NCBI GenBank assembly: GCA_948144175.1 | Contig: CANXME010002525.1 | Location: 62,001-126,000 of the forward strand | DNA: 64,000 bases | Direction of reading: 5' to 3' | Source: Closterium sp. NIES-65 | Taxonomy: Eukaryota > Streptophyta > Zygnematophyceae > Desmidiales > Closteriaceae | Shown: piece by piece, positions 17,610 through 63,058 of the stretch | Layout of the letters: every line of letters begins with the position of its first letter | Position numbering within the stretch: the first letter of the stretch is position 1 | The notes under the pieces: generated by a model | What the model was told of the DNA's origin: nothing | Databases searched by the model: none | Seen by the model: only the letters and a program-made list of their open reading frames with translations | Translations under genes and position numbers: made by a program

Positions 17610-20600
17610 ATGAACGCTTCGCGTTTGATCAACGTCAACGCGATGCCACACGCTTTGGGCCCGCCTTTGAGTATCTGTGCTCATTTTACAATTAAGAGCT
17701 TCAAACACAATGTAGGCCTCAGCTCCGCGTCGAACCTAGCTCCTTCTCCGTGGGTTCAGGCAGAGCGCGAAGTCGAAACAAGAGGTTTCATCTCGTCCGT
17801 CCAGATTCCGCGTGCTCAATCATGGCCGTGGGGTCCGGCTTCGGTAGATCCCAATACGAAATCCGCTGTAGAGGGACGTGCCACAGCCACGGAACCTGCA
17901 TTACCTGGTAGGAACATCGGAAATGTTGCTACAAAAGAGTCCTCGTATCGCAATCTTCATCCCGCAGAAGCTGCTCCAATTCGAAATACCACACGGAATG
18001 TTGCTGGGAATGGCGCTTCTGAGAATGCCAGATCCAAATCTGGTCCAGCGAACGGCACCGCAGGCAGTACTGTCACGGAAAGTCGTGTGGTTGGTTCGGC
18101 CGGACCTGAGGCCCAGTTAGGTTCGGCTGCAGCAGTGGGAAGTAACGGGGTTGCTGGAGGTCGCAGAAGAAGAAAAATGCAGCCGAGTTCGGATACACTT
18201 GCGAATGCTGAATCAGGAGCTGGGCGCGTGACAAGTATCGAGTCTGCTAATAACGGACGCAGAGGGTCGACTGCATCAGACGTGAACCGGCGGCTGACTT
18301 CCAACGCTGCGTCGCAGCCGTTGGATGATTCAGTAACCGCGTCTCAGCCGTTGGATGTGTCTGATCCTAGGGTTTGGCTCCCTCCGCCGCCAGACGTGCC
18401 CAGACCTCGTGCTACGCATAATGCAGCCATGCTGGCGTATATCGGGGATGGAATCTATGAGGTGAGACTACGTGTAGTGGTGTCAATTCTTAAGAGTAAG
18501 CACTTCCTGAGACCACAGGGATGCGTCAACATACCTGAGGGAGACTCCCCGCTTGCTGGTAGGGCAGATCGGGGAAATGCCCTACTACAGTAATGTACAC
18601 CCGACAAGGAAGTCATTAGAATTGAGATTTTAGACAGTCTTGCTGTTTCCTTTCTGTTTTCCACCTCTCTTTATTTGCATACATCCAGGATCTCCTCTCT
18701 CCCTCTTTCAGCTGTTTATAAGGCATCATTTCGTGAACAAGAATTTCGTTGTGGTCACATTAGATTCGTTGATCCCTAATGCATGGATTTCTTCTAACAA
18801 CCCTCCCATCCACTCATCTCCTTCGCCATTCTGCCAACCCTCGCTCCCTGATCAGCTGTATGCGCGGCGTCACTTCTTGAACCCCCCGTCCGCCATAGCC
18901 ACGTACTGCCAACGAGTCACAGCTGTTGTCTGCTGCGAAGCCCAGGTGAGATTTGGTTTCGCTGATGCACGCGTATGTGCACATGAGACCCACACGCAGT
19001 AGATACTATCGCCACGTACTGCCAACAAGTCACAGCTCTTGTCTGCTGTGAAGCCCAGGTGAGATTTGGTTTCGCTGATGCATGCGTATGTGCACATCAG
19101 ACCCACACGCAGTAGATACTCTCGCCACGTACTGCCAACAAATCACAGCTCTTGTCTGCTGTTAAGCCCAGGTGAGATTCCGTTGCTGTAACACACAAGT
19201 ATATGCATGCGTGCACGCCCACCCCCCACCCCCACCCCCCACCCCTCCTCCCCACCCACCCCCCCCCAACACATACACGAAGAGGCACTCACCGACCCGC
19301 ACACATCCAGTGGCACTGCCCATATCGCCAACAGCCTCGTGGGCTGTGGGCTGAGAGGGCCAGATGCGAACTGACTAACTATCCTCTCACGCTTCGATGT
19401 GCACATGCATTGGGTGTTTGCGGGACGCGTGTGAGTCGACTAAAAACTCATCTGTGCACGCACAGATGCATTGGGTGCTTGCAGGACGCTTGTGGGTCGA
19501 CTTAATACCTATCAGTGCACTGCACTGCGCACATGCATTCGTTCCTTGCAGGACGCTTGTGGGTCGACTTAATGCCTATCAGTGCACTGCACTGCACACA
19601 TGCATTCGTTCCTTGCAGGATGCTTTGCTGCGACGATTGACCTCCTCGAAGATGCTCACAGAGGAAGAAAGGTACGTGCACGCATGCATGCATGTGTGTG
19701 AGTTTTGGGGATGCTGTGGGGGAGTGTACCATGGTAAGTGATGCCTTTGCTACGGCGATTGACCTCCTCGAAGATGCTCACAGAGGAAGAAAGGTACGTG
19801 CATGCATGCATGTGTGAGTCCGTGTCTGACTTTGATTCATTTTTCTGTTTTCTTCATATGCATCTGGGCTGGGCCCACTGGTACGATTCATACATATGTA
19901 ATTCTAGATTCCTTAAGGACGCTCTACAGATTCCTTGCAATGACTGAACACTCCTTAGTCACAGGAGTATACCATGCCATGGTGAGTGATGCCCCTAACT
20001 AGTTGATTTTGTCTGTAACTGTGCGGTGGAATACGGTGCCATGCTGCAGGGACGTGGTGCAATGCGGTGGGCCCAGCCCACTGGTACGATTCATACATAT
20101 GTAATTCTAGATTCCTTAAGGACGCTCTACAGATTCCTTGCAATGACTGAACACTCCTTAGTCACAGGAGTATACCATGCCATGGTGTGTGATGCCCCTA
20201 ACTAGTTGATTTTGTCTGTAACTGTGCGGTGGAATACGGTGCCATGCTGCAGGGACGTGGTGTGATGCGGTGGGAAGGCAATGCTTCCACAGGTGCCTTT
20301 TGAGCATCCCACAGGTGTAACCATGTAACTGTGTAACTCTCATGCCATGCTGCAGGGACGTGGTGCGGTGGGGAGGCAATGCCTCAACGGGGGCTAGGAA
20401 GGCCAAGGGGAGGGCTGGATCAACTGTGTATGCCAACGCCACTGCACTTGAAACACTTGTGAGTGATACGACTCTCGTTTGGCTGCTTGAATGATGAGAC
20501 TCTCGTCTCGTTTGTGGGTGAATGAGACTCTCGTTCAGGTGACCTTTGAGAAGACACAAAGGTACTTAAAGTCAGCAGAAGGTGATCCAGGGTGTATGCC

Positions 20601-20935
20601 AAAGCAACTGCACTTGAAACACTTGTGAGTGCAAATCTCATGTGATTTCTTGAGTCATGCCAACACCTGCTATTGGAGCACTAGCAGTCACTACACTTGT
20701 AAAACATACAGGCTGATTAGCTTTTGCAGTGGGTTGCTGTCTTCGTATGAGTTCTTTTTGTTCACCCTTGTTTTTGTTGTGTTTTGTGTTTTTGCTTTGT
20801 GTTTTCCCTTGCCCTTCTCAGATTGGATTCCTCTACCTCACCAATCCTCCCCGCCTCGAAGAATTAATGTACAAACTTGGCTTTGTGTGTGATGCCTCGG
20901 ATCTGCTCCTTCCTTCCCATGCAAAGCGCCAATAG
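17610..20935 (+). CDS. Mini-RNase III (plant RNC3/RNC4-like)
   Basis: Five exons: 17610-18461, 18856-18945, 19619-19671, 20356-20458, 20822-20935 (TAG), all joining in frame to 403 residues. The long N-terminal region (about 270 residues, Ser/Asn/Ala/Arg-rich) is probably an organelle transit sequence plus linker. The catalytic domain starts at AMLAYIGDGIYE (Asp of the GDxxYE signature), continues LYARRHFLNP, then LTSSKMLTEEERDVVRWGGN, and ends ATALETLIGFLYL, which carries the second acidic residue. Mini-III enzymes are homodimeric endonucleases lacking a dsRNA-binding domain; plant members mature 23S rRNA and degrade intron RNA in chloroplasts. Start: ATG 17610 is the first in frame; ATG 17643 is an alternative. 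Introns 2-4 contain truncated copies of exons 2, 3 and 4. Confidence 0.85.
18898..19185 (+). repeat. Triplicated 3' half of Mini-RNase III exon 2
   Basis: The segment beginning GCCACGTACTGCCAAC and running through the exon 2 donor (CCCAGGTGAGAT) plus about 60 bp of intron is repeated at 18898, about 19010 and about 19125. The first belongs to the real exon; the later two are echoes that still have a donor but no acceptor. Confidence 0.8.
19405..19797 (+). repeat. Echoes of Mini-RNase III exon 3
   Basis: The acceptor side of exon 3 (TTGCAGGA and preceding CATGCATTCGTTCC-like sequence) is repeated at about 19410, 19480 and 19545 before the real exon at 19619. A near-complete copy of the exon body and donor (GATTGACCTCCTCGAAG through GGTACGTGCA) follows at 19745-19800. 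Degenerate palindromes such as GTGAGTCGACTAAAAACTC (from 19431) lie at the joints. Confidence 0.75.
19866..20270 (+). repeat. 200-bp tandem duplication plus exon 4 echoes
   Basis: The block CCCACTGGTACGATTCATAC ... CATGCTGCAGGGACGTGGTG occurs at about 19876-20056 and again at 20087-20260. Each copy ends in a truncated copy of exon 4 (acceptor TGCAGG and about 15 coding bases). The real exon 4 starts at 20356; its 3' end plus donor is echoed once more near 20588-20632. Confidence 0.75.
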
Positions 20936-21164
20936 AAAGAAATCATTTCCATGCGCATAGTTGCACTCGCTTATTTTGTGTGTTTCAACCAACACTAGCG
21001 TCATTGTGTTTTGGGAGTATATTTCATGTAACTTTAGGAGACAACTCGCTTACACTCAATGTTGTGCAACCTTAGTGTTCGGACTGGTTGCTTCTAGTGA
21101 GTCAGCCTGTCACAAAAGCAAGACGACAAGAATCCACAAACCCATTCAGCCGACTCTTCGTCCT

Positions 21165-24100
21165 ATGACGCGGTTCCACCTCCTCCAGCGGTTCTGCCGC
21201 CGTGGATCGCGCCGCGATACCCGCCACAGCGATGTTGCCAACGGAGTGTGGAACCGCGTGATTCGCGCGGAAAGCACGGCTTGCAGCAGTGCTGCCGCTA
21301 CCAGCGCTAGCAGCACCGGTGGCTGCTCCACCATTAGGATCAATGGCTGTGATGGCGGAGCAGGGTTGATCGGTGGATCTGGACCGTCCAGATGGGACCA
21401 TCGGCATCAGGCTGGGCTGCTGGGCTCGATCAGATTTGATCTCCTCCCACGAGTCGAATCTTCTGATCGCGAGTCTTGTCACGAGCCTAGCACAGCCACG
21501 TCAGCAGATCCGCGTCAGCATAGGACCGCGTCGCTAATCCCGTCCGCTTCTTGCGCCGCCAGCTCCACATTAGAGGGTCCTTTCCCGTGGAATGAAGCAA
21601 CGGCGGAATTCTCCGCTCCCCAGTTCCGCTTTTCCGCGCCACCCCCGTTTTCCGCCTCTTCCGCCAGCCCTCTTCCCCCCTTCCGTTCCGCCGCCTCCCC
21701 CTCCTCCCCGCCGCATCTCGCTTTCTTTCGTTCCGCTTCCGCAACTTCCGCCTTTCTGCCCGGAAGCTTCGCCTTCTCGGCCGCCGGGTTTCACTCCTCT
21801 GCTACTTCCGCGAATGGCGCCGCAATCGGCGGCGCCTCCGGCTCTAACACTAGCGACGAAAGCAGCAGCCAAAATGCAGCCAGCGAGTCCGTTTTGTCTG
21901 ACGTGCCGCTTCCCTCCGGTGCTGATGTCAGCGGCGCGGTATTAGGCGACGGTGCCGCTGACGTCATCAGTGCTGCCACGTCGGACCTGGGGGTGACAGT
22001 GGGGTCTGAGCTGGCAGCGGCGGCGGCGCACTGCTCGGCGCCCATTGCCGCGTTGCAGCAGCTGATTGGTGCAGTGCATGACGTGGCAGGCCTGCCCTGG
22101 TGAGTGAGTGACGTGTCATGTGTTTATTCGGTCTTGCCCAAAGCATTGTTCATGCACTGGAGCCAGGCGAGCACCCCGTTATTGTGTTGTGATCCTCTCG
22201 TTATAATCACAGGTGGCTTTCTATAGCAGCAGCAACGGTGGGGATCAGGCTCATCCTGCTGCCTGCATTTGTCTACCAAGTCAGATCAACGGTCAAGATG
22301 GCTGTGAGTGTCAGATCAACGGTCAAAACGACAATGGGTTCAGCTGCGAGCTGCAGCACAACATACAATATTTCATCATCAAAAGTCCTCAGCTTTTGCT
22401 TCATTCTCAGCTTTTGCATCATCTCACATCATCTCACATCATCTCACATCATCTCACATCATCTCACATCATCTCACATCATCTCACATCATGAGCCTCA
22501 TACTCGCTGCTCCTTTTTTACTTTCTCCTTTTGACTCCCCGTGCCTTTTTCTTGCATCTACCCCTCTTTCTTTTTCTTGCATCTACCCCTCTTTCTTTTT
22601 CTTGCATCTACCCCTCTTTCTTTTTCTTGCATCTACCCCTCTTTGTTTTTCTGTTTTACCGTGCCCTTCATTCGTTTGTCATTCCCCCCTCTCTCCCCTT
22701 CTCTCTACCTCTTTCTGCCTCCCTCCAATCCCAACCAAAAACCAAACCCAACCCAACCGCACCCCACCCCTCACCACCAGCTCATCAAGCCAGAGATGGA
22801 GCGACTGTTGAACAAAGTCAAGGCCGCTGTGAGTCGCTCTGCCCTTCTCCTCCTCTCTCCTCCCACCTCTCTCCTCCTGTCCCCTCCCTCCTCTCTCTTC
22901 TCTCCTCTCTCCTCCTCTCCCCCTCCTCTATTGTTACCCATTTCTCTCCCACCCCTTCTCCGCAATGCGTTAGTTACATTGCCCGCTAACCTCAGGGCCC
23001 CCCTCTATAAAGCTCTAACGTTTCTGTGTGAAACCTCAACCGGTGACTTTTGAGTCGATTCAAAAGTCAACTCGTTGCGTTGCTCCCCAACCCCAGGCCC
23101 CCTTTTATAATGCTTCAAACCGTACAGATTAAACCTCGACCTGTGTTTCTGCCAAACCCCCTCCTCATCACCCTCATCACCCTCATCACCTCATGCATCA
23201 CAGGGGTACGACACAGAGGCAGTTGCTCACTGCAATGGCAAGATGCAAGATGCAAGATGCAAGATGCAAGATGCAAGATGCAAGATGCAAGATGCAAGAT
23301 GCAAGATGCAAGATGCAAGATGCAAGATGCAAGATGCAAGATGCAAGATGCAAGATGCAAGATGCAAGATGCAAGATGCAAGATGCAAGATGCAAGCGGC
23401 AAGAGCTGATCTGTCCGTCCCTTCCTTCTCCTCCCCTCTCCCTCTCCCTTCCCCCTCCCTCTCCCCTCCCCCCCCCCCCCCCCCTCTCCCCTCCTCCCCC
23501 CTTATGATTCATCGCAGGGCTACGACACGGAGGCAGTGGCTCACTACAATGGCAAGATGCAAGCGCTGCTAAAGAAGTAGGTGCTCTCGAGTCACTGTGC
23601 TCGAGCTTGTGCTTGTGCTTTTGCTCTGTGCTTGTGCTTGAACTCGAGCTTGTGCTTTTCCTCTTTTCCCCGTCAGATTGTGAGTTTGTCATTTAAGATT
23701 TTGTTTCTTCATATTGATGACTACCTTAAAACCTCTGAAATTTCCTTGTATAGAAAGGCGGTATGTCCCATACCCTAAACCCTTCTCCCTGTTTTTGAGG
23801 CGCCTTAAAAGTCGTTTTGAGGCGCCTCAAAATATTTCTCTGTGTACAAGCGCTGTGTGTCCCATACCCATACCCTTCTCCCCATTCCTGGCCAGACCAT
23901 AGCCACACCGCACCTGCGTACTCCTTCCTCCCATCCCTACCATCTGAGGTGACTTTTGAGTCGACTCAAAAGTCATTCCTGACCAGACCATAGCCACACC
24001 GCACCTGCGTACTCCTTTCCTCCCATCCCTACCATCTGAGTACTCCTTCCTCCCATCCCTACCATCTGAGTAGTCCTCCCTAAACCTCCAAAACCCCGAA

Positions 24101-27100
24101 ACCCTTAAACCCGAACCTCTTGAAACTGTAAACCCCCGAAACCTGAAACCTCCGAAACCCTTCTCCTGTGATGGATTTGACGCGTCAAGCCTCATTGACG
24201 CTTGCGCCTTCCCTCCCTCCCTGGCTGGCCTGCTGCCGTGTGTGATTAGCCGATTTTTGAGTCGACTAAAAAATCGACTAATCACACATTCCTGTGATGG
24301 ATTTGACGCGTCAAGCCTCATTGACGCTTGCACCTTCCCTCCCTCCCTGGCTGGCCTGCTGCCGTGTGTGATTAGTCGATTTTTGAGTCGACTGAAAAAT
24401 CGTCTAATCACACATTTCTGTGATGGATTTGACGCGTCAAGCCTCATTGACGCTTGCGCCTTCCCTCCCTCCCTGGCCTGCCTTCCCTCCCTGGCCTGCC
24501 TGCCTCCCCCTCTCCCCTCCTTCGACACATCTATCCTTCCCTCCTCCCATTGCTCCTCGGCTCTTATTCTCCTTCCCTTCCTGGGCTTCTCCCTGTCTCC
24601 TGTTGCACCCCCCTTTCCCCCCTGTTGCTCCCCCCTCCCCCCAGACACAACACCACGCCCTTTGCTCCTCTCCTCGGGATCTTCCTGCAAGCGCCCATCT
24701 TCATCGGTTTCTATTTCGCTGTACGTATTTTGCACTTGCACTTGCACTTGTTCTTCCCCCCTTCTCTTCTTGCTGTACCGAGGTGACTTCAAAGTCGATC
24801 CAAAATAAACCAAGGTGACTATTGAGTTGACTCAAAACGCACTTGCACTTGCTCTTTCTCTTCCCCCTTTCTCTTCTTGCTGTTTGCGTACCGTGCACTT
24901 GCTGCACTTGCTGAGTCGACTCAAAAGTCATTTTGCTGTACGTGTTTTGCACTTGCACTTGCTCTTTCTCTTCCCCCTTTCTCTTCTTGCTGTACGCGTA
25001 CCGTGCACCTGCTGCTCATCCCTGATTCACACTTCGCTGGTTGCCTGCATAAGCTCTTCTCTTGAGTCGACTCAAAAGTTGTACGCTTATTGTGCACGCG
25101 CTGCACTTCGCTGGTTGCATGCATAAGCTCTTCTCTTCTGATCGCCTGCAATGCAAGCGCTTCGTCATTCAGTCTCAGGCCAAGCCTTCTCTGCTTCAAG
25201 TTTTGAGTCGACTCAAAACTCGACTCATTTTGAGTCGACTCAAAACTCGACTCATTTTGAGTCGACTCAAAACTCGACTCATTTTGAGTCGACTCAAAAC
25301 TCGACTCATTTTGAGTCGACTCAAAACTCGACTCATTTTGAGTCGACTCAAAACTCGACTCATTTTGAGTCGACTCAAAACTCGTCGTTCAGTCTCAGGC
25401 CAGGCCTTCTCTGCTTCACTTCGAAATTTCTCAGAAAACACTTCCTTTAGTCCTTTTGCCGCAGAGAAAAATAGGTTCGACCCAGATCCAACAGACTTAA
25501 CTCGTCCTAATCTTTGAGATTTCTCAGAGAATGCTTCCTTAAGACCGTTCCTCAACCCCCCTTCTCCCTGTCCTCCTCCCCCTTTCCCTATCCTCCTCCC
25601 CCTTTCCCTATCCTCCTCCCCCTTTCCTATCCTCGTCCCCCTTTCCCTATCCTCCTCCCCCTTTCCCTATCCTCCTGTTGCAGATCACAGGAATGGCGGA
25701 GCACATGCCATCGTTCGCAACAGGGGGAGCTTTCTGGTTCACCGACCTCAGTACACCTGATCCCACCTATCTGCTGCCTCTCATGTCCTCTGCTGGCATC
25801 CTGGCTGCTGTGGAGGTATGTCGTTTTCTGCAAAGCTCACCTCACCTCACCTCACCTCACCTCACCTCACCTCACCTCACCTCACCTCACCCCACCCCAC
25901 CTCACTTCACCTCACCTCACCTCACTTCACACCTCACCTACCTGCTTCTTCTCCTGTCCTCGCACCCTCGCTCCTGTCCCTTGCACCCCTTGCACCTCCC
26001 CCCTTCTCAGCTGCATTTCTATTTTTCAATCCTTTACAGGTGAAGTGAGGTGCGGTGCGGTTTAATCCTTTGCATGCCTCTCTTGTATTCCAGCTGAACG
26101 CAGCAGAGGGCATGGAGGGAGCACCCAATGCAGCGCAGATGAAGTGGTTCATGCGAGGGCTTGCTGTGACCATGGTGCCGCTCACTGTCACGTTCCCTAA
26201 GGTAACGCATGTCTGCTTACTGTCGCCTTCCCTAAGGTAACTTTCTCTCACACTGTCACGCTCCTTGCTGTCACATTCTCCAAAGCAAGTTGTTTTGAGG
26301 CAGCGCAACTGAAGTGGTTTATTATGAAAGGATTGGCTGTAAACCATGGTGCCTCTTACTGTCACGTTCCCTAAGGTTGTACACTGCCATGCCACTCATG
26401 TTACTTGCTGTCACGTTCCTTAAGGTTGTACAGTGTGACACTACGTAATGTACACTGCCATGCCGCTCATGTCACACTACGTACAGTGACGTTGTTACTT
26501 GCTGTCACGTTCTGTAAGGTAACTTGTTCTGAGCCGCGTTAAAGGAAGAGCAGTGCTGATGGTTAATGAGAGGAGTGGCTGGCTGGGACTATGGTGCTGC
26601 TGACTGTCTGCTTCGAGTCGACTCAAAAGCTGGTTGATGAGAGGAGTGGGTGGGACTATGGTGCTGCTTCGTCCATTCAACTACTCCAGCCCTTCGAACA
26701 TGAGTCAAGGTGACCCAGTGGCTGGGACTATGGTGCTGCTTACTGTCATGTTCCCTAGGGTAGCATCAATTGTGATGTTTGCTAGATATGCACATGTGTT
26801 CCTGTGCTCATTCATTGTCAGTAAACCTAATGTATTCATATGTGTACTTGCAGTGTGCTTTTTTCTTCAGTGCGTTGGTTTTTTTCTCCTTCTTCTTAGA
26901 TTATTCTTAGCTGCCTTTTCTATTAATTTTTTGTTTTTCTCTTTTTTTACTGCAGGCTGTGTTCTGCTACTGGATCACCACCAACGTCTTCTCTCTTGTC
27001 CAGGGCCTAGGTACGTGTGTAGTGATAAACGGGATGACGTTTGAGTCGACTCAACTGTCACCAGGTGTTGCTGCAGGCTGTGTAGGCTGTGTTCTGCTAC

Positions 27101-27539
27101 TGGATCACCACCAACGTCTTTTCTCTTGTCCAAGGTCTTGGTACGTGCGTAGTGATGATCGTGCTTGTATAATTTGGCTGAGTCAGATATTCCTCATACA
27201 CCTTACCTTACGTCATTCGCAATATAGCCTCTGTTTTTTTTTTTTTTTTGGTGCTCCCTTGTGGTCCTTGTTTGGTGTGAATTGATTACCTTGTTGTCAT
27301 TCACTTCCCTACTAACATCCAATTTCTTTCTTTCGCTGTCTCTTTTCTCAGGTCTTAAGCGCCCTGGGGTGCGGAAGGCTCTTGGGATCCCTACTCTTAA
27401 GCCTCCGTCATCGAATGCGTCTCCTGGAAGTGCCTCTCTGGGATTACCTGTGACGCAAACATCTGCCCTTCCTCCTAAAGCAGCCGCAACAACGAGAGGG
27501 AACACAAGAAGACCACCGTCAAAACGGAGAACAAGGTGA
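21165..27539 (+). CDS. OXA1: Mitochondrial OXA1-type membrane protein insertase
   Basis: Nine exons in consistent phase: 21165-22099, 22213-22303, 22781-22828, 23518-23576, 24645-24720, 25684-25815, 26094-26201, 26956-27010 (or 27086-27140), 27352-27539; 563 residues. The N-terminus MTRFHLLQRFCRRGSRRD is Arg-rich with no acids at first, like a mitochondrial presequence, followed by a long Ser/Ala/Pro region. The insertase core shows GLPWWLSIAAATVGIRLIL, KHNTTPFAPLLGIFLQAP, GGAFWFTDLSTPDPTYLLPL, ELNAAEGMEG, VPLTVTFPKAVFCYWITTN and FSLVQGLGLKRPGVRK, the classic five-helix OXA1/YidC pattern. OXA1 inserts mitochondrially encoded and some imported proteins into the inner membrane; the basic C-terminus (SKRRTR) would contact the ribosome. 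The KRPGVRK segment fits mitochondrial OXA1 better than plastid ALB3. Its introns are full of echoes of its own exons and of short palindromes. Confidence 0.9.
22418..22492 (+). repeat. 10-bp tandem repeat (ATCTCACATC)n
   Basis: Seven or so perfect ATCTCACATC units in OXA1 intron 2, followed at 22544-22645 by four copies of a roughly 24-bp pyrimidine-rich unit (TTTTCTTGCATCTACCCCTC). Confidence 0.9.
23044..23069. repeat. 26-bp palindrome, TCGA centre
   Basis: Arms TGACTTTTGAG / TTCAAAAGTCA around TCGA (23055-23058), one mismatch. Flanked by diverged direct repeats (left from about 22966, right from about 23076; both contain GCGTT...CAGGCCCCC...AAACCTCRACC...GTG). Confidence 0.75.
23204..23396 (+). 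repeat. Echo of OXA1 exon 4 grown into (AAGATGC)n
   Basis: After a good acceptor (CATCACAG) lies a copy of the first 33 bases of exon 4 (GGGTACGACACAGAGGC ... AATGGCAAGATGC). Its last seven bases, AAGATGC, are then repeated about 22 times without interruption to 23396. The intact exon follows at 23518. The microsatellite was therefore seeded from exon sequence. Confidence 0.88.
23765..23880. repeat. Paired GCGC-centre palindromes between direct repeats
   Basis: TTTTTGAGGCGCCTTAAAA (centre 23800-23803) and TTTTGAGGCGCCTCAAAA (centre 23822-23825). The left flank GTATGTCCCATACCCTAAAC and the right flank GTGTGTCCCATACCCATACC are direct copies of each other. Confidence 0.8.
23883..24040. repeat. 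67-bp direct repeat split by a 26-bp palindrome
   Basis: Copies at 23883-23949 and 23974-24040 are nearly identical. Between them lies a perfect palindrome (23950-23975, arm TGACTTTTGAG, centre TCGA). There is no spacer on either side beyond one or two shared bases. Confidence 0.9.
24163..24480. repeat. A-P-A-P-A array: 75-bp repeat and 50-bp palindromes
   Basis: A unit starting TCTGTGATGGATTTGACGCG occurs three times. Between copies 1/2 and 2/3 stand two palindromes (24239-24288 and 24365-24414), each with 23-nt arms and two mismatches around a TCGA centre (arm GATTAGTCGATTTTTGAG or a close variant). Confidence 0.9.
24723..25136. repeat. Chain of direct repeats with TCGA palindromes
   Basis: A unit built of TTGCACTTGCACTTG, CTTCCCCCTTTCTCTTCTTG and GCGTACCGTGCAC repeats three times. 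Palindromes or degenerate versions sit at each joint: centres near 24795, 24827, 24916-24919 and 25067-25070. The last one separates 33-bp copies at 25029-25061 and 25104-25136. Confidence 0.8.
25162..25417. repeat. Seven-fold palindrome array between direct repeats
   Basis: Seven 27-bp units from 25201 to about 25381, each TTTTGAGTCGACTCAAAA plus a 9-bp linker CTCGACTCA. The array is bracketed by 36-bp direct repeats at 25162-25197 and 25382-25417 (TCGTCATTCAGTCTCAGGCC and matching). Confidence 0.93.
25838..25936 (+). repeat. (CTCAC)n microsatellite
   Basis: About 20 CTCAC units with a few CCCAC and TTCAC variants in OXA1 intron 6. A (CCCCTTTCCCTATCCTCCT)n pyrimidine tract at 25565-25680 precedes exon 6. 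Confidence 0.88.
26296..26765 (+). repeat. Echoes of OXA1 exon 7
   Basis: Pieces of exon 7 and its donor recur downstream in intron 7: near 26300-26378 (GAAGTGGTTTATTATGAAAG ... ACGTTCCCTAAGG), and shorter pieces with GGGACTATGGTGCTGCT at about 26585, 26653 and 26725. A TCGA palindrome (centre 26618-26621) separates the direct copies at about 26561 and 26632 (GGTTRATGAGAGGAGTGG). Confidence 0.78.
26956..27140 (+). repeat. Duplicated OXA1 exon 8 (8a, 8b)
   Basis: Exon 8a (26956-27010) and exon 8b (27086-27140) are each 55 bp with an AG acceptor and GTACGTG donor, and encode the same 18 residues (AVFCYWITTNVFSLVQGL). They differ at four bases, all synonymous. Using both would shift the frame, so they are mutually exclusive. 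A degenerate TCGA palindrome (centre 27046-27049) lies between them. Confidence 0.85.
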
Positions 27540-28338: not shown

Positions 28339-31300
28339 ATGGCATTGCTAAGAGCATCCGGCTTGCAACTGCGGCTAAACGTCAGCCCATCGATACAATG
28401 CGTAAGTGTCACATACGGTTCCTCCGATCCATCCCATTTCTTTCCATTCACACCTTCTGATACGAAGCTGAAGTTACGCAAGCGGTTTTCTTCCCCCTGT
28501 TTGGAAAATATTCATTGGACGGACCTCGACCGCGTTTTGGGGGTGCTTGTTAGTAAGAACAACCTCCCTTGCTATTCTTCAATAAATTAAGTTTCAATGC
28601 TCCCCTCTTTTCAGTCACGCAGACGGCCCTCGCCTTTGTCACGCCTTTCTGTAGTCACATGCCAACTGGGCGATTCAAACGAAGGTGGGGAGTCCGTAGT
28701 GGCTCGGCCGTTCGAGGCTGAGACGGAGGCTCGGGCACAAGCCAGGCTCGCAGCTTCGGATCCGAACCGACGATACCAGGTGCGAGCAGCAGGTCCATCC
28801 TGACTGAACTAGATGCCTCTGCAGGCGGCATTTCCATGTTCTTTTTTCCGGCGTAAATACTGCAGGTTTCAGTGATTGAAAAAATCCAACTGCTGACGCG
28901 CTCACTGTTTGATAACAAATAGTCTCAGACATATGCTCATTCTCAAAGCCACCACTCCCAACCACTCCCGACCGTTGCAGGAGATGATGCAACGGAGGGA
29001 GGAGAGCCGACAACAGACCATGCGAGAGTACGGCGATGTGAGTCACTCTTGGAAGCCTGAGCCATTTTCGGTTGCATTTTAGATTTCTTAAAAACAAACA
29101 CCAAAAACCACCTGCAACAACAAACCATGCGAGAGTACGACGATGTGAGTCACTCTTGGAAGCCTGAGCCATGTTTGTTCCAAATAATTAACCCCACCCT
29201 TAAAAGCGTGAGCCAAATCCATTTCAAAGTCTTCGAGTCACCCTTGAAAGCGCGAGTCGCTATTCTCTTTCATCTCTGCCTCCCCAACCTTCTTAGTTTC
29301 CCCACTTTCCAATTCATCCGCCCGTTTTTTCCTGTACCAGCTGAAGAAGCAGTTGTCGCAGACGGCTATAGGAGTGGGGGCTGCAGGCACGCTCTACTGC
29401 TTCCTCGGAATCTCCATTCAGGTGAGAAAGTGCGAGGGTTTCTGTGAGAGTGTGTGCTTGCTGTGTGTGTTGGCAAGTGTGTTTGGGAGGTATTTGGCGA
29501 GTGCTTGTTTTGGGAGGTTGTGCGAGTACGAGTGGGTGTGTGTGTGAAAACAGGGGATGAAAGGAAAACGAGTGTGGGTGGTCGACCTCCGTGAGTGTGA
29601 GTGCGAGTTTCACGGAGTAGTTTGGCTTATTAAGTACAGAGACCGGGCTCGACCAGGTTCTGAAACGCCTCAAAACTAAAACGTTTCAATTACACCCCCC
29701 CCCCCCCCCCCCCCCCCTCCCCTCCCTCCCCCCCCCCCCACAAAAAAAAAAAAAAAAGTCAACCCCCCCAAGAAAACGAAAAAAACCCCATCCCTCCCTT
29801 GTTCTTCCCATGCGCCTCGTCCCGTCCATACTACAGACTGCCATCAGCTATGGCATCGGAAGCGCTGCCAGGTATTTTCGACTGGGTAGTGATGCTGGGG
29901 GAGGAAGGGGAGGGGAGGGGGTGAGGGGAGGGAAAGGGGTGCGGGAGGGGAGAGGTGAGAGTGTCAGCGTCCCTACTGGCTGAACCTCGCCTGTTGGTTA
30001 TTGGTTGAGGTCTCAATTGCCGATTGAGGGTTTAGGGTGTCGCTTCAGGGTATTGAATGTAGCTTTGAGATTTGGGTGTAGCTTGAGGGTGTTGGGTGCT
30101 GCGTGAGTGTTTTTGGTGTTCTTTCAGGGTTTTGTGTCACTTGAGGGTTTTGGGTGCCCATTTTGTCCTATCGTCCTTCTCCCATCGCCCATAATTGTTT
30201 CCTCCCCCTTGCCCCCTACCGCCCTTCACCCCATTGCACCCTACCAACCTTCCATCCACCCTTCTCCCCTTTCCCCTCTACCGCCCTTCTCTCCATTCCC
30301 CTTCCGCAGTTTTCCTTTTCCCCATCTCCCCCTATCTCGCGTCTCCCCAACCCCAGCTGCCTCTATCTGTTACTGCTCTTCAAGGTCAGCTGGGGGTGAC
30401 ACCCCTCACCCTCAGCCTGCTACCCCCAGACACCACTCTCATCTGCCTTGGCTCTCAAACCCCTCTGCCCCTCCCCTTCTCCCCATCTCCCACAACCAGC
30501 TACCTCTACCTGCTGCCGTTCTGCAATGACACTGGCACCTTTACACTCTTGAGGACCTGCGTGCCTGCAGCCTTTCTCAACCCTATTCCCCTTCTCCTCA
30601 TTCCCTCTCTTTCACCCTTTCCTCCCCCCCACACCCAGCTGCCTCTACCTGCTGCCGCTCTGCAATGACACTGACACCTTTTTTCTCTTGAGGGCCTGAT
30701 GCTGCAGGGTGTTTGTGAGAATTTTCAAAAACGACCTGCTGCCGCTCTGCAATGACACTGACACCTTTTCTCTCTTGAGGGCCTGCCTGCCTGCAGCCTT
30801 TCTCAACCCTATCCCCCTTCTCCTCATTCCCTCTCTTTCACCCTTTCCCCCCCCACACCCAGCTGCCTCTACCTATTGACAGCCCCTTCAACAACAACAC
30901 TGACACTATCACCCCTGCCCTGAGGACCTGCCTCTGAAACCCTCTGTGCTTCCTCCCCTATCGTCCTTCTCCCCTGCACAACCTCCCCCATCCAGCTGCC
31001 TCTACCTGCTGCTTCTCTTCTAAGGCACTGACACCATCACTCCAGAGGACCTGCCTCCGGTCTTCCTCACCCCCTGTCGCCCTTTTCCCCCCTTCTTCCT
31101 TCTCCCTTCTCCTTTCTCCCCATCTCTCCATCTCCCTTCTCCCCGTCTCCTCATCTCCCTTCTCCCCATCTCCTCATCTCCCTGCTCCCTCCCCACATCC
31201 AGCTGCCTCTACCTGCTGCTGCTACTCAACGACACTGACACCGTTGCCCCAGAGGACCTGCCTCCAGCTTTCCTCCTCACCTCCTGTCTCCCTTCTCCCC

Positions 31301-34300
31301 ATTTTCCCCTGTCACCCTTCTCCCCCACAACCTTCCTCCCAACATCCAGCTGCCTCTACCTGCTGCTGCTATTCAACGACACTGACACCATCACCCTGGA
31401 GGGCCTCCCTCCCGCTTTTCTCATCTGCTCCTCTCTCCATTCACCCTGACCTTACTCTTTCGCCCTTCTTCCCCACACCCCCAGCTGCCTCTACCTGCTA
31501 CTGCTGTTCAACGACACTGACACCATTGCCCCCGAGGACCTGCCTCCAGCCTTCCTTCCTCACCTCTAGCGCCCTTCTTCCCCCTTTCTCTCTTCACCCT
31601 TTTCCCTTCACCCTTCTCCCCCACCCAGCTGCCTCTACCTGCTGCTTCTTTTCAACGACACTGACACCATTGCCCCCGAGGACCTGCCTCCAGCCTTCCT
31701 TCCTCACCTCTAGCGCCCTTCTTCCCCCTTTCTCTCTTCACCCTTTTCCCTTCACCCTTCTCCCCCACCCAGCTGCCTCTACCTGCTGCTTCTTTTCAAC
31801 GACACTGACACCATTGCCCCCGAGGACCTGCCTCCCGCCTTCCTCATCGACCGGAACAAGCCCAAGAGGTGAGGCAAGATGACAAGGGGTGAGAAGGGGT
31901 GAGGAGGGGTGAGACGGTGTGAGTTGAGGTGAGAGTGGGTGAAACAGAAAATTGAGCACGTTTCAAATGTACTATGCAGCCAAACCCACATGAAACTCTC
32001 TACACCCATCCAAACCCCTCTCGTCACCCTCGTCACCACTTCTCATCCAGCTAGCTCACGCTGACAGCCTGGCATCAGCACACTCTTCTCAGAATCTTCT
32101 GCAGGGGCATTCAACGCCCTCTCGCCATCTCAATGTCTCTGTGTTCCCCTAACCTGCCACGGTGCCACCTTACCCAACCCCTACCCACCCCTCCCCTCAC
32201 AGGAAGGGGCTTGTTGACAGCTTAGGAACAGTCGATTAGCCCCAGAAGCTCCTGCAGGGGGCTCTGCTCGCCCTCTCCTCGCGCCGCCGCCTGCTCGTGC
32301 CTTCTCCACCCTCTATCTACCCACCTCATACCAACACCCCATCCCATCCCAACCCCCGCAGCTCCCAGGAAAGGCCTGATTGACAGCCTAGCAACAGTCG
32401 ACTCGCCCCAGAAGCTAGTGCAGGGGTCTCAGCTCGCCCTCTCCTCTCAATGTCCTTGCTCCCCTTACCTGCCCCCTTACCCACCCCTCTACCCAACCCC
32501 CCCCCTCCTCTAAAACCAACCCCAGGAAGGGCCTGGTTGACAGCCTAGCAACAGTCGATTCACCCCAGAAGCTGCTGCAAGGAGCACAGCTCGCCCTCTC
32601 CTTCCACCGTTGTTGTTCCCCTAACCTGCCACCTTACCACCCTCCCCCTTTGGCAGGAAGGGCCTGGTTGACAGCCTAGCAACAGTCAATTCACCCCAGA
32701 AGCTGCTGCAGGGGGCACAGCTCGCCCTCTCCTCGCGCCGCCTGCTCATGCCTTATCCACCCTCTACCCACCTCATGCCAACACCCCGTCCCAACCGCCC
32801 TCTCCCAGGAGGCCTGGTTGACAGCCTAGCAACAGTCGATTCACCCCAGAAGCTGCTGCAGGGAGCACAGCTCGCCCTCTCCTCCTGCAGTCTCTGTGTC
32901 CCTGTTACCCATCCCCTAACGATACCCATCCCTCCCCTCCTCTAACCACTCTCTACCCACCCATTCCAGGAAGGGCCTGGTTGACAGCCTAGCAACGGTC
33001 GACTCGCCCCAGAAGCTCCTGCAGGGCGCTCAGCTCGCCCTCTCCTCGCGCCGTCTGGCCGTGCCTGCTGCCCTCGTGCTGCTCTGGGCCTTCTCCGTGC
33101 AATTCAGCGGCAGCGACCCCAACAGCTTGCACATCGAGGTGAGGAGGTTTGTAGCTAAGTTGGATCTTACGTTTTCGGTTCCTAACGTTTTCGGACGATT
33201 ACGACAATTTTTACGTTTACGAACGGTCGCCCTGATTCGGCCTTACATTTACGGTCACCTAAAAACTTTTCTGAGCTGCCCGAGGAAAAGAAACGACCAG
33301 AGCATCAGGAAGACTCCCTCCAAACTAGTTCTGTAACTCGCTATCTTGTTCGACGTCAACCTAGCAGCTCGTTCGCAACCTATCGTGTTTCTCTCTTACT
33401 AACCCGGTCAACGCTGAATCTGAAACTTTCAGACTTGAAAGGCGCTCCATACGTAGTAAAGTCGCTATTCTATGCAGGTACACGACAAATTAGTGGTAGG
33501 ATCTGGTACCCGTACACAATCCAGAAAAAAACAAATATCACAGTAGTTTTTTTTTCCTGCCCGCCTCATACTTACGCGTAATTTTACGTTTCCGTTTACG
33601 TTTACGCTAAATTACACGAAAATTACGTTTACGAGACCTCAAAAAACGTAAGAGACCGGCTTAGGTTTGTAGGATGGTGGTGAGAGGTGGTAAGTGGTGC
33701 TGAGAGATGCATGCACCCTCCTCCTGCCGCCTGCTAGTGCCTGCTCGTGCCTGCTGCCCTCGTGCTGCTCTGGGCCTTCTCCGTGCAGTTCAGCGGCAGT
33801 GATCCCAACAGCTTGCACATCGAGGTGAGGAGTGACAAGGTTTGAAGGAGAGTGCTGGTGACTGCTGAATGTAGGGGGCAAAACTACGTGAAGTGAGGGT
33901 GTTTTTGAGACGTCTCAAAAACACCCTCACTTCACGTGAGGAGTGAGAAGGTTTGAAGGAGAGTGGTGGTGACTGCTGAATGTTGGGAGCAAAACTCGCC
34001 CTCCGCTCGCCCTCTGCTCGCCCTCTGCTCGCCCTCTGCTTGCCCTCTGCTAGTCCTCTGCTTGCCCTCTGCTAGTCCTCTGCTTGCCCTCTGCTAGTCC
34101 TCTGCTCACTGTCTGCTAGTCCTCTGCTCGCCCTCTGCTCGTCCTCTGCTCGCCCTCTGCTCGCCCTCTGCTCGTCCCCTGCTCGCCCTCTGCTCGTCCT
34201 CTGCTTGCCCTCTGCTCGTCCTCTGCTCGTCCCCTGCTCGCCCTCTGCTCGCCTTCTGATCGCCCTCTGCTCCCCTTCTGCCCTCACCTTTCCTGTAGTG

Positions 34301-45900: not shown

Positions 45901-46401
45901 AACGTCATCGCTAAGCGCAACGCTGATCGCCACCGCCGTCCTGTCACGTACCAATCTGGAGATTACGTGCTGCTCGACACGCAAAATCTGCGACTGCCCG
46001 ACGTACCGAAATTACGACCGCGCTATTGTGGACCATTCCAAATCAGTCACATGATCACACCCGTCACTGCACACCTACTGTTGCCAACCGACTGGTACAT
46101 TAGCCCTTCGTTCCACGTCAGCCTACTTCGCCCATACATCCCGACCACAAGTCAACTGCCGCGTCACCGGCCACAATCAATGACTCGCCCTGCATCAGAG
46201 CCGATCATCGAGCCCGAAAAAATTCTGAGCCATCGGATCCGCCACCCCACGGGAATCAGGAGGATTGAATTCCTCGTTCGCTGGAAAGACCGCACGCCAA
46301 CTGAAGATAGCTGGGTGCCCCTGAGCAACATCGAAAATCACCCTGCCCTGCAAGTGTACCTGAGGAGCCGGGGATTCCGCGATATACACGCACTCGCGTA
46401 G
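42899..46401 (+). CDS. Gypsy POL: PR-RT-RH-IN-chromodomain
   Basis: Frame -1 to GAG, open from 42865, presumably entered by frameshifting at 42892-42898 and ending with TAG 46399-46401. There is no ATG near the start; the first possible unaided start is GTG 42973, numbered 1 here. Protease DGGASH (Asp 40) and ILLGRDWL; reverse transcriptase with PFGLTNAPATFQ and YLDD (387-390); RNase H with TDASDIAVGAVL; integrase with an HHCC finger (from His 721: HDGITSGHF ... CPTCQ), MDFVTGLP (about 790), ISDRDTKFTSNFW and HPETDGQTERTNQ; GPF module (RPRYCGPFQI); C-terminal chromodomain (IRRIEFLVRWKDRTPTEDSW, about 1090-1140). Chromodomains direct such integrases to modified chromatin. All catalytic motifs intact. 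Confidence 0.95.
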
Positions 46402-51182: not shown

Positions 51183-51224
<42 letters not shown>

Positions 51225-53152: not shown

Positions 53153-53205
53153 AGTGAGAACCAACGCGAACGAACAGGCGAGTAACAACCGGGGGGAAAG
53201 AGGAC

Positions 53206-54301: not shown

Positions 54302-59015
<4,714 letters not shown>

Positions 59016-60934: not shown

Positions 60935-62419
60935 ACAAAGACTATGCATGAACCCACTGAACCCATCCCACCTTCATCCCACCCCATCACAATTCATCCC
61001 ATCTTCTCATCCTACCTTTTCTGGAACTCGGCAGGAGGAATGCCCGTGGTGGGTGCACCTATTGACCCCATCATCTGTGCACGGGGAGGGGATGTGGGGA
61101 GAGAGAGATTTGATGACGCTGCAGGGGGGGATGTAAGCGAGAGGTTGGAGATATGCCCGAGGTGGGTGCACCTATTTACTCCATCATCTGTGCATGGGGA
61201 GGGGATGTGGGGCGAAGGGGTGAAGAGGGAAAGGACATCAGGGAGAGGGAGAGAGAGTGGTATCAGCCCTGACAAACCGCCCTTTTGAGTCGACTCAAAA
61301 CACAAACAGCCCTGCAAGATTGCACAGAGAAGTCAACCCTATCCTATTCCTCCCATCCTAATTCCTCCCATCCCTATTCCTCCCATCCCTATTCCTCCCA
61401 TCCTAATTCCTCCCATCCCTATTCCTCCCATCCCTATTCCTCCCATCCTAATTCCTCCCATCCCTATTCCTCCCATCCTAATTCCTCCCATCCTAATTCC
61501 TTCCATCCCTATTCCTCCCATCCTCATTCCTTTCATCCCTATTCCTCCCATCCTAATCCCTCCCATCCCTATTCCTCCCATCCTAATTCCTCCCATCCTA
61601 ATTCCTCCCATCCCTATTCCTCCCATCCTAATTCCTCCTACCCCTATTCCCCCCATCGTATTTCCTCCCATCCCTATTCCTCCCATCCTAATTCCTCCCA
61701 TCCCTATTCCTCCCATCCTAATTCCTCCCATCCCTATTCCTCCCATCCATATTCCTCCCATCCTAATTCCTCCCATCCCTCCTAATCCTCCCATCCCTTC
61801 CTCCCATCCCTCTCCCTCCCATCCTTCTCCCTCCCATCCTTCCCTTCCATCCCTCTCCCTCCCATCCCACTCCCTCCCAACCCTCCTTTTCCCATCCCTC
61901 TCATATCATCCGCACTCCTTCCAAACCCACCGCACTCCTCCCAACCGACCACTTCACATCCCACCCACCCCTGTTCACATCCTGCAACACCACTCATAAC
62001 CACCCCCCTTCCCACTCCCATCCTGCTCACATCATTCAGCAGCACGATTCATCTCGCTCAGCTGGCAGGCACGTCTAGGAAGCGGTTCATCTGCGTGTCT
62101 GCCAGTTGAGTCAACTCAACGGCCCTCCAACCGATCCCAACCGTTTCTCTTATCCCACCCACTGCCACCCACTCCCATCCCGCTCACATCTTTCAGCAGC
62201 GCGTCTAGAAAGCGGCTCATCTGAGAGTCTACCAGCTGCCACCCCAAACCCCCCCACCTCTTCATATCCCACCCCACCTCTTGCACATCCTGCCAAACTC
62301 CTCCGAAACCCACCCCACCCATCCCGCTCACATCTTTCAGCAGCACATCCAGGAAGCGGCTCATCTGAGTGTCTGCGAGCTGCCGATACTCCTTCGACAT
62401 ACGTAGGTCGGGGAACAGA
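59864..62419 (-). CDS. EXO70-like exocyst subunit, 3' exons (partial)
   Basis: Four exons join in phase: 62419-62332, 61074-61016, 60781-60635, 60014-59864 (stop). Earlier exons must lie to the right, beyond the 23-bp satellite. The encoded C-terminus reads LRMSKEYRQLADTQMSRFLD, GIPPAEFQKRLDAFNVAFEE, HVHDSVARTQIRGVCHERIL, SSYKEFLMPF and finally PEYRWSVSSAKRVMQNFF. The order AFNxAFEE ... V.D...R..IR......L..SY..F....F ... P..Y..SV......V..FF matches the end of EXO70, which tethers exocytic vesicles to the plasma membrane. The family call is from motif pattern only. The DSVARTQIR and FLMPF positions are unusual, so a diverged paralogue is likely. Confidence 0.55.
60053..60560. repeat. Echoes of the EXO70-like SYKEFLMPF exon end
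   Basis: The exon 3' end with donor (plus strand: TTACCTGAAGGGCATGAGGA, then GAGGAGAGGATGCGCTCGTG) recurs at about 60110, 60225, 60365 and 60490 between the real exon (60781-60635) and the last exon (60014-59864). Each keeps a GT donor but no complete exon. Confidence 0.8.
60895..60933. repeat. 39-nt poly-T run
   Basis: Uninterrupted T run (A run in gene orientation) in an intron of the EXO70-like gene. Could be a retroposed poly-A tail or a slippage tract; no adjacent retroposon recognised. Confidence 0.9.
61264..61314. repeat. 18-bp perfect palindrome, TCGA centre
   Basis: TTTTGAGTCGACTCAAAA at 61283-61300, flanked by short direct repeats CAGCCCTG (61264-61271 and 61307-61314). Confidence 0.8.
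61336..61800. repeat. 14/15-bp minisatellite (ATTCCTCCCATCCCT)
   Basis: About 30 units alternating ATTCCTCCCATCCCT and ATTCCTCCCATCCTA. Then it degrades into CTCCCTCCCATCC repeats to about 61910. Creates a spurious Ser/His/Pro-rich frame. Confidence 0.92.
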
Positions 62420-62830
62420 CTGCAAGCGAGGGGGGGAGGGGGGGAAGGGGGCAATGGGGAAGTGGTGGGAAATGGGGGAATGAGTTAGAGGGATGATGTG
62501 AACGGGTCAAGCTGAGTGTCTGCCAGCTGCCGATACTCCTTCGACATACGTAGGTCGGGGAACAGACTGCAAGCGAGGGGGGGGAGGAGAGGGGAAAGGT
62601 GAGTCAAGCTGAGTGTCTGTCTGTCAGCTGGCGATACTCCTTTGACATACGCAGGTCAGGGAACAGGCTGCAAAGAGTGGGAGGGATGAGAGAGGAGGGG
62701 GAGTGGTGGGGGAGATACGAATACCAGGCATGAATAGAGGGGAGGAAGGAAGCGGTTCATCTGAATGTCTGCCAGCTGCCGATACTCCTTTGACATACGC
62801 AGGTCGGGGAACAGAAAAGATTGCAAGAAG
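62100..62830. repeat. Echoes of the LFPDLRMSKEYRQ exon
   Basis: Parts of the exon at 62419-62332 are copied on both sides. 3' halves (with the TCACATCTTTCAGCAGC donor region) lie near 62185-62240 and 62035-62110, the last next to GTTGAGTCAACTCAAC at 62105-62120. 5' halves with acceptor (CCGATACTCCTTCGACATAC) lie at about 62530-62580, 62630-62670 and 62775-62820. Confidence 0.78.
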
Positions 62831-62870
62831 AGAGGGGGTGGGGAGGTGGGGAGAGGAAGGGGGGCGCTGA

Positions 62871-63058
62871 AACGGCATGGGAGGGATTGAGGGGCATGGC
62901 ACAATGAGAAAGTTTGAATGACACACAGGTTAACGAAACAAGAATTGGGGGAAAAGCACCTCCACTCACGATTGAAGTCTAGTTTTGAGGCGCCTCGAAA
63001 ATAAACGGGCATGGGAGGGATTGAGGGGCATGGCACGATCCGAGTGTCTGAATGGCAC
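62871..63058. repeat. Direct repeats around a GCGC palindrome
   Basis: Left copy 62871-62923 and right copy 63004-63058 (AACGGCATGGGAGGGATTGA...GGCATGGCAC). Between them lies TTTTGAGGCGCCTCGAAAA (centre 62990-62993). The right copy runs straight into the 23-bp satellite, whose unit resembles its end (GTGTCTGAATGGCAC). Confidence 0.85.

What the first reader, a model, noticed from the sequence alone, without database searches (positions are those of the whole stretch)
19405..63058. Family of short palindromes placed exactly at the joints of direct duplications
More than twenty loop-less palindromes share arms TTTTGAG / CTCAAAA but differ in their centre (TCGA, GCGC, ACGT, AATT) and in outer arm sequence. 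Nearly every one lies between two direct copies of the local sequence (copy-palindrome-copy), in introns of unrelated genes: OXA1, CGL160-like, HPPK/DHPS, EXO70-like. Copy lengths run from about 30 to 135 bp. I know of no mobile element with such long target duplications and so small a body. Possibilities: a minimal palindromic mobile element inserting at widely staggered nicks; a repair or template-switch pathway that leaves a palindromic scar; or palindromes that provoke duplication.
Basis: partly seen in the sequence, partly recalled or inferred. Interest (0 to 1): 0.92.

Follow-up and report, generated by a model that had tools for sequence, protein, structure and literature searches.

The report
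Palindromic inserts that duplicate their target
A Closterium alga carries tens of thousands of tiny perfect palindromes, and most of those examined sit between two copies of the DNA into which they landed, a pattern that none of the mobile elements or repair scars compared here explains and that looks as if one short tag had been written onto both ends of a staggered break.

Summary
Confirmed, and larger than reported. The window lies in an 874-Mb Closterium assembly with 30,327 exact TTTTGAGNNNNCTCAAAA (reversed pattern: 4). In 264 kb examined, 49 of 62 palindromes have direct copies close on both sides, against 88 of 307 shifted local controls and 67 of 300 random sites. Palindrome and second copy arrive together: three filled sites have four paralogous empty sites with one copy and no palindrome. 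Copies run from about 15 to 190 bp. The centre is self-complementary (TCGA, ACGT, GCGC or AATT); the outer arms are mostly truncated separately (of 13,080 TCGA cores, 1,417 and 1,421 have a full left or right arm, 321 both). A head-to-tail tag joint seen at one sample site occurs 49 times genome-wide (control 0). Best reading: two 3' overhangs are each extended by the same short tag, the tag ends pair through the self-complementary tetramer, and fill-in gives copy-palindrome-copy. Coupled insertion with long duplication is shown at three sites; the tagging enzyme and template are inferred. Main rival: capture of a palindromic duplex at staggered breaks. My searches listed no described counterpart.

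The parts
19405..19489 (.). copy 19405-19428, palindrome core 19428-19447 (TCGA centre, degraded), copy 19466-19489; start of a 67-bp tandem array
20426..20631 (.). copy 20426-20465, degraded palindrome GGTGACCTTTGAGAAGACACAAAGG 20538-20562, copy 20592-20631
22973..23148 (.). diverged copies 22973-23050 and 23074-23148 around GGTGACTTTTGAGTCGATTCAAAAGTCA (core 23047-23066)
   Evidence: 56 of 74 identical; below threshold
23764..23882 (.). copies 23764-23789 and 23858-23882 around two adjacent GCGC-centre palindromes (23792-23811, 23815-23832)
23883..24040 (.). 66-bp copies 23883-23948 and 23974-24040 (65 of 66 identical) around GTGACTTTTGAGTCGACTCAAAAGT; perfect 26-bp palindrome 23950-23975
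24164..24477 (.). X-P-X-P-X: three copies of a ~90-bp sequence, palindromes 24254-24273 and 24380-24399 with arms of about 25 bp each
24658..25015 (.). nested copies around two relics at 24780-24838 and a palindrome at 24908-24927; copies 24839-24905 and 24949-25015 (64 of 67 identical)
25030..25136 (.). copies 25030-25062 and 25104-25136 around palindrome 25059-25078
25162..25418 (.). 37-bp copies 25162-25198 and 25382-25418 around an array of 6.8 units of 27 bp, each with TTTTGAGTCGACTCAAAA (25201-25384)
26560..26668 (.). copies 26560-26601 and 26631-26668 around palindrome 26610-26629
26954..27156 (.). 73-bp copies 26954-27026 and 27084-27156, each with a short exon-like segment between AG and GTACGT, around palindrome 27038-27057
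   Evidence: exon read by eye
29010..29172 (.). 56-bp copies 29010-29065 and 29117-29172 around a degraded palindrome 29075-29094
30508..30930 (.). long copies 30508-30698 and 30734-30930 (169 of 188 identical) around AATT-type palindrome 30712-30731
33825..33996 (.). 61-bp copies 33825-33885 and 33936-33996 around the longest perfect palindrome, 52 bp, 33886-33937 (ACGT centre)
34263..34615 (.). X-P-X-P-X with GCGC-centre palindromes 34352-34371 and 34484-34503
34567..34705 (.). copies 34567-34622 and 34651-34705 around TCGA palindrome 34625-34644
55887..56064 (.). 70-bp copies 55887-55956 and 55995-56064 around 34-bp AATT-centre palindrome 55955-55988
56300..56583 (.). 124-bp copies 56300-56423 and 56460-56583 (115 of 124 identical) around GCGC-type palindrome 56435-56454; the right copy lies in the HPPK exon and ends, on the - strand, at GTAAG
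   Evidence: HPPK match of 56464-57150 (-)
61282..61301 (.). perfect TCGA palindrome without a long flanking copy (at most a ~12-bp repeat)
62870..63059 (.). copies 62870-62925 and 63003-63059 around GCGC palindrome 62982-63001

Best explanation
Each site is the scar of one event. Shown at three sites with empty paralogs, and implied by the same anatomy elsewhere: a locus U-X-V becomes U-X-P-X-V, where P is a loop-less palindrome and X is 15 to ~190 bp of local DNA. Inferred mechanism: (1) two nicks on opposite strands, |X| apart, give a break with two 3' overhangs that both consist of X; (2) each 3' end is extended by the same short tag w (full TCGA form AGGTGACTTTTGAGTCGA), whose 3' end is fixed and whose start varies, as if the end paired somewhere inside a template and was copied to the template's end, sometimes for more than one round; (3) the tags end in a self-complementary tetramer, so the two 3' ends pair with each other; (4) fill-in copies w and X on both sides and leaves X-w-rc(w)-X. 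The palindrome is thus made at the break and not carried in as a unit. The template (short RNA, or existing tags) and the enzyme (telomerase-like or retroelement reverse transcriptase, or a template-copying repair polymerase) are unknown.
For: Flanks: 49 of 62 against 88 of 307 and 67 of 300. Four empty sites for three filled sites, each with one X and no P: C9 site 9163 (X 15 bp) against two units, C6 site 78970 (X 20 bp) against its paralogous gene, C9 site 4610 (X ~22 bp). Centres of the 67 exact cores: TCGA 30, ACGT 13, GCGC 11, AATT 9, and 4 single-base variants of these; a self-complementary end is what pairing of two identical tags demands. Outside the core the TCGA letters AGGTGAC stand at 0.44-0.73 and fall to chance beyond position -16. 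Left and right arm lengths do not correlate, r = -0.14, n = 50. Genome-wide, of 13,080 TCGA cores 1,417 have a full left arm, 1,421 a full right arm and 321 both, so 87% of the 2,517 sites with any full arm lack the other. The head-to-tail joint TTTTGAGTCGAGGTGACTTTTGAG, seen once in the sample, occurs 49 times in the genome (48 besides that one), control 0, in several places in 17-bp steps: w-w-rc(w) is expected from repeated tag writing, not from inserting palindromes. Small tandem duplications at breaks with 3' protruding ends are experimentally known in human and mouse cells (PMC8355091; abstract, outline and introduction read).
Against: No enzyme or template was identified. Near-invariance of TTTTTGAG is partly by construction, since sites were chosen by it. 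The tag picture is not clean: at TCGA loci, letters assigned to the insert match AGGTGAC in 68% of cells, but letters assigned to X still match in 46%, and where both arms belong to the insert they agree in only 57% of 162 cells (37% of 438 where one arm is X); boundaries are blurred, or inserts hold other filler. Full arms co-occur more than independence predicts (321 against 154, odds ratio 2.8); tandem arrays and age could cause this. At ACGT-type sites variable letters agree between the two arms, so both tags would have to come from one template variant. Microhomology between X and tag is only suggestive: 17 of 28 junctions with >=1 base, 7 of 28 with >=2, and the way boundaries are drawn favours matches. 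No clear target motif (50 edges). The head-to-tail joint is rare beside 13,080 cores, its runs may be later tandem growth, and mirrored pairs of places suggest that alleles are counted twice. The empty sites are paralogs at 72-90% identity, not alleles.
Confidence: 0.46

Rival explanations
1. Capture of a ready-made palindromic duplex or hairpin as filler at staggered breaks: both 3' overhangs are filled in (duplicating X) and end-joining takes up a trimmed palindromic fragment from an abundant source.
For: Explains X, the variable outer ends (trimming) and equal variable letters in both arms; gapped duplications without the palindrome also exist (29 of 51 at >95% identity have other spacers); association of full arms; impure insert letters.
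Against: Needs a pool of palindromes with four different self-complementary centres; does not predict the head-to-tail half-tag joint with fixed ends (49 matches).
Confidence: 0.28
2. A minimal mobile element (palindrome as binding site) moved by a transposase or recombinase that cuts the two strands 15-190 bp apart.
For: Tens of thousands of similar copies, several arm-sequence types, coupled target duplication.
Against: Enzymes of this kind as I know them give duplications of fixed, short length (recalled; introners: 3-9 bp, PMC9860276 passages); here length varies widely, and the ends are variable.
Confidence: 0.17
3. Palindromes came first and later provoked duplication of the DNA beside them (hairpin stalling, template switching).
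For: Palindromes are fragile in general (recalled); some loci show tandem growth X-P-X-P-X.
Against: Duplicating a segment that already contains P gives P twice; the four empty sites have neither P nor the second X.
Confidence: 0.06
4. Artefact of library making or assembly.
For: The centres are restriction-site-like hexamers (my observation, no call).
Against: Palindromes decay with their copies (rho 0.34, p 0.017, n 50; inner arms perfect at 6 of 6 loci under 2% divergence and at 43% of 21 over 12%); the core-bearing share of gapped duplications falls from 22 of 51 (>95% identity) to 10 of 56 (90-95%) and 5 of 52 (75-90%).
Confidence: 0.02

Closest known systems
Small tandem duplications at breaks with 3' protruding ends (CST / Pol alpha-primase; PMC8355091, abstract and introduction read)
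   Same: Opposed nicks, 3' overhangs, both filled in, so that the overhang sequence is duplicated; under 100 bp.
   Different: No conserved insert is described in the parts I read; here a specific palindrome lies at the joint, with 30,327 exact cores in the genome.
Introners (PMC9860276, passages read)
   Same: Many short inserts in genes, with target duplication and sometimes inverted ends; the full TCGA tag begins AG|GTGAC, so P plus the second X could serve as an intron when X ends in AG (untested).
   Different: Introner duplications are 3-9 bp; these inserts have no body and duplications of 15 to ~190 bp.
Non-LTR retrotransposons with long target duplications (rotifer R9; seen only as a cited title)
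   Same: Target-primed synthesis from nicked 3' ends, truncated copies, long duplication (recalled).
   Different: No element body, no 3' tail, symmetric palindrome, no fixed target seen.
MITEs / terminal-inverted-repeat transposons (recalled)
   Same: Inverted symmetry, high copy number.
   Different: Outer ends variable, duplication long and variable.
Mobile palindromes of organelle genomes (yeast GC clusters, Neurospora PstI palindromes, double-hairpin elements; recalled)
   Same: Tiny palindromes spread through a genome.
   Different: Organellar, with little or no target duplication (recalled).
Paired prime editing (recalled)
   Same: Two nicks whose 3' flaps, written from a template, pair with each other.
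   Different: Engineered; here the two flaps would be identical and pair through a self-complementary end.

Membership tests
MITE / TIR DNA transposon | Fixed-length short target-site duplication | tested here: not met
   X lengths 16-112 bp at 49 sites in a search limited to 130 bp; up to ~190 bp
MITE / TIR DNA transposon | Conserved outermost termini | tested here: not met
   Letters fade outwards; 321 of 2,517 sites with any full TCGA arm have both
Introner | Target duplication of 3-9 bp | tested here: not met
Introner | Insert is spliced as an intron | not testable with these tools
   no transcripts; an open-frame comparison of rebuilt empty sites was no substitute
Non-LTR retrotransposon copy | Element-derived body with 3' tail | tested here: not met
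   at cleanly bounded sites the insert is about 19-60 bp and palindromic
Non-LTR retrotransposon copy | Synthesis primed at target 3' ends, seen as truncation and microhomology | tested here: inconclusive
   arm lengths vary separately; microhomology weak
Tandem duplication from staggered breaks | One local copy before, two after | tested here: met
   four empty sites for three filled ones
Tandem duplication from staggered breaks | No specific sequence at the joint | tested here: not met
   core in 38 of 160 gapped duplications against 0.13% of shuffles; the other 122 lack it
Ordinary minisatellite | Palindrome repeated with each unit | tested here: not met
   at sites such as 33825-33996, 55887-56064 and 26954-27156 P lies once between two copies; some sites are arrays

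The most novel reading that the evidence does not exclude
A natural process of symmetric end-tagging: a telomerase-like or retroelement-derived enzyme writes one short templated tag onto both 3' ends of staggered breaks; the tag's self-complementary end makes the two ends pair, sealing the break and leaving a palindrome between two target copies. It would have acted thousands of times or more in this genome, and it may build introns, since a full tag begins AG|GTGAC and the second X copy can supply the body and the 3' splice site.
Probability: 0.38. Interest if true: 0.96.

Novelty: categorically new. Interest (0 to 1): 0.92.

Why it matters
A bodiless insert with a constant middle, loose ends and long target duplications does not fit the classes of mobile element or repair scar compared here. 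If the tagging reading holds, it is a way of mending breaks, or of spreading, in which the product is manufactured at the break, and a large source of local duplication and possibly introns in a close algal relative of land plants. The family is big enough for strain comparisons to settle the mechanism.

Tried and rejected
Chance palindromes: rejected. Chance flanks in a repeat-rich genome: baseline measured with local shifts and random sites. Artefact: disfavoured by joint decay. Target motif at the outer edges of X: none clear. Rfam families or tRNA genes in the window: none found at the thresholds used. Another palindrome family in the 29 spacers of young duplications without the core: none seen by eye. 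Splicing of the insert: the longest open frames across rebuilt empty sites (median 149 codons) were not longer than in controls (196). The paralogous intron at C6 32527 lacks a palindrome but was too diverged to count X. Of 50 rebuilt empty sites, 8 had an off-locus match spanning X; I aligned four: two were clear (9163, 78970), C10 sites 5726 and 6748 were too gapped to read; the other four, one of them a tandem array, were not aligned. Microhomology: suggestive only. Never answered by the genome machine: counts for CACGTG-N12-TTTTGAGACGT and for C..G centres, and an allele search with window 55700-56650. Literature: 10 searches, of which I saw the listings, named nothing that describes this; the Closterium genome-size paper (PMC10407611, passages only) has no word beginning 'palindrom' in its main text. 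Preprints are not held and most subscription papers are missing.
Full report
What the window is. A homeobox-type ORF at 37999-39597 (-) matches two proteins of Closterium sp. Yama58-4 (53% and 63% identity) and one of Closterium sp. NIES-67 (62%) best, of 9 hits, so the DNA is taken as nuclear DNA of a Closterium (Zygnematophyceae); the species is not given. The window is contig C2227:62001-126000 of an assembly of 874,075,685 bases in 2400 contigs. DHPS (Pterin_bind, E 2.9e-83), HPPK (1.3e-13) and EXO70 (9.4e-06) are confirmed by Pfam; the short exons taken for OXA1 and CGL160 gave no hit.

The palindromes. There are 13 exact TTTTGAGNNNNCTCAAAA in the window, 25 places with at most 3 mismatches to TTTTTGAGNNNNCTCAAAAA, and none in 10 simulated first-order Markov sequences. 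The 13 exact ones are perfect palindromes over 18 to 52 bp. In the genome the exact pattern occurs 30,327 times, the reversed pattern 4 times; TTTTGAGTCGACTCAAAA alone 13,080 times, reversed 0. In 264 kb (window plus 20 stretches of C2227, C6, C9 and C10, partly chosen because hits lay there; 5 kb of it reads N) the 67 exact cores have centres TCGA 30, ACGT 13, GCGC 11, AATT 9, and one each of ATGT, TTGA, AATC, ACAT, all one base away from the four.

The flanking copies. With copy edges within 16 bp of the core on both sides and score >=24, 49 of 62 palindromes (sites within 150 bp after another one dropped) have flanking direct copies, 88 of 307 sites shifted by 120-250 bp, and 67 of 300 random sites; at score >=40 the numbers are 43, 68 and 50. 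Looser measures point the same way with a higher baseline (51 of 61 against 49 of 150). From the other side, 38 of 160 independent gapped local duplications carry the core in the spacer, 0.13% of shuffled spacers and 2.9% of random places; by identity of the copies 22 of 51 (>95%), 10 of 56 (90-95%) and 5 of 52 (75-90%). The other 122 gapped duplications lack it, so short gapped duplication is a wider habit of this genome. Inner-arm mismatches rise with divergence of the copies (Spearman 0.34, p 0.017, n 50; the choice of sites with few mismatches limits this test).

Coupled arrival. Three filled sites have paralogous empty sites in the fetched DNA. At C9 (stretch from 115001) site 9163, filled X(15 bp)-P-X, two related units at 8758-8826 and 8922-9000 (90% and 84% identity over 69 and 79 bp) have one X and no palindrome; in the alignment the filled site is longer by 44 bases, which is insert (29) plus X (15). 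At C6 (stretch from 40001) site 78970 the paralogous gene at 33811-34024 has one X and no palindrome (72%). At C9 site 4610 the related unit at 3368-3556 has one X and no palindrome (78.6% over 159 bp). Eight of 50 rebuilt empty sites had an off-locus match spanning X; I aligned four of them, of which the first two above were clear and two (C10) too gapped to read. A further paralogous intron (C6 32527) lacks the palindrome but could not be read for X.

Anatomy of the insert. Folding both arms on each other, TTTTGAG is nearly invariant, which is partly how the sites were chosen; outside it the TCGA type reads AGGTGAC at 0.44-0.73 per letter and falls to chance beyond position -16 (31 sites). 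Arm lengths left and right do not correlate (r = -0.14, n = 50). Against a clean picture: at TCGA loci letters assigned to the insert match AGGTGAC in 68% of cells and letters assigned to X still in 46%; where both arms belong to the insert they agree in 57% of 162 cells, against 37% of 438 elsewhere. Genome-wide, full TCGA arms occur 1,417 times on the left, 1,421 on the right and 321 on both of 13,080; independence predicts 154 (odds ratio 2.8). Both arms full is thus the exception, with a moderate association. At 7 of 12 ACGT-type loci (one array counted once, read by eye) CACGTG or a variant lies exactly 12 letters outside TTTTGAG; the 12 letters differ between loci and agree, wholly or in part, between the two arms at the three loci where both are long (window 33886-33937, C6 95291, C9 2378). 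The AATT type has a form TGATGCTGCAGGGTGTTTTTGAGAA at three loci, with one base different in one.

Head-to-tail tags. One site in C9 reads, on the minus strand, AGGTGACTTTTGAGTCG-AGGTGACTTTTGAGTCGACTCAAAAGT, two tags in a row before the palindrome. The joint TTTTGAGTCGAGGTGACTTTTGAG, predicted from that one case, occurs 49 times in the genome (21 and 28 by strand, that case included), reversed 0, in several places as 17-bp steps. Mirrored pairs of places (C1666/C2336, C626/C1787) suggest that some are alleles or duplicates counted twice. The joint fixes both ends of the tag unit, AGGTGACTTTTGAGTCG(A), with the last A shared with the first A of the next.

Mechanism. Shown: insertion of P is coupled to duplication of X at three sites; P has a self-complementary centre and outer ends that are mostly truncated separately; tags can follow each other head to tail. 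Inferred: staggered nicks with two 3' overhangs, writing of the same tag on both 3' ends, pairing through the self-complementary tetramer, and fill-in. The duplication half has an experimental precedent at breaks with 3' protruding ends in human and mouse cells (PMC8355091; abstract, outline and introduction read). The tag half has none that I found. Missing or against: no enzyme or template, weak microhomology (17 of 28 junctions with at least one base, 7 of 28 with two), no clear target motif, impure insert letters, agreement of variable letters between arms, and the excess of double full arms. Capture of a palindromic duplex as filler remains the main rival.

Comparison with known kinds. 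Introners have short duplications (3-9 bp, PMC9860276, passages), and terminal-inverted-repeat elements short ones of fixed length with conserved ends (recalled); neither is met here. Long duplications are known for an rDNA-specific retroelement (seen only as a cited title), but such elements have bodies (recalled). Ten literature searches listed no description of this; the held library lacks preprints and most subscription papers.

Limits. All genome counts are exact matches and include arrays and probably both alleles. Flanks were tested in 264 kb, not genome-wide. Empty sites are paralogs. Splicing and activity could not be tested. Three planned genome queries did not complete because the machine was busy.

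Noticed in passing
window 60015-60690, 62351-62815, 32196-33057, 30985-31844: Gene stretches hold several diverged direct copies of what look like neighbouring exons, with unrelated spacers; local copying is common here beyond the palindrome class.
   Followed up: partly
window 8193-13505 (+) and 47105-53188 (-): Two Copia-like polyprotein ORFs in opposite orientation (family recalled); the stretches match at 94.5-98.4% with no palindrome of at most 3 mismatches inside.
   Followed up: no
window 41753-46401: Two long ORFs that read like gag and pol of a Gypsy-type element (family recalled, no search made).
   Followed up: no
window 2044-3483 (-): ORF that reads like a transposase (recalled, not searched).
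   Followed up: no
window 4714-6314: 72-bp tandem array, open in several frames.
   Followed up: no
window 63043-64000: 23-bp array of more than 41 units that begins inside the right copy of a copy-palindrome-copy site.
   Followed up: no
G000 C6 about 136185-136400 and 137344-137480: Arrays of 24-bp and 20-bp units built of TTTTGAGGCGCCT... and GACTTTTGAGGCACTTTTGC, i.e. of tag-like units.
   Followed up: partly
ACGT-type sites, e.g. window 33886-33937: CACGTG (or a variant) lies exactly 12 bases outside TTTTGAG at 7 of 12 loci; why the spacing is fixed while the 12 bases vary is unexplained.
   Followed up: partly
G000 C1666/C2336 and C626/C1787: Mirrored spacings of the head-to-tail joint suggest that the assembly holds alleles or large duplicates, useful for empty-site searches.
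   Followed up: no
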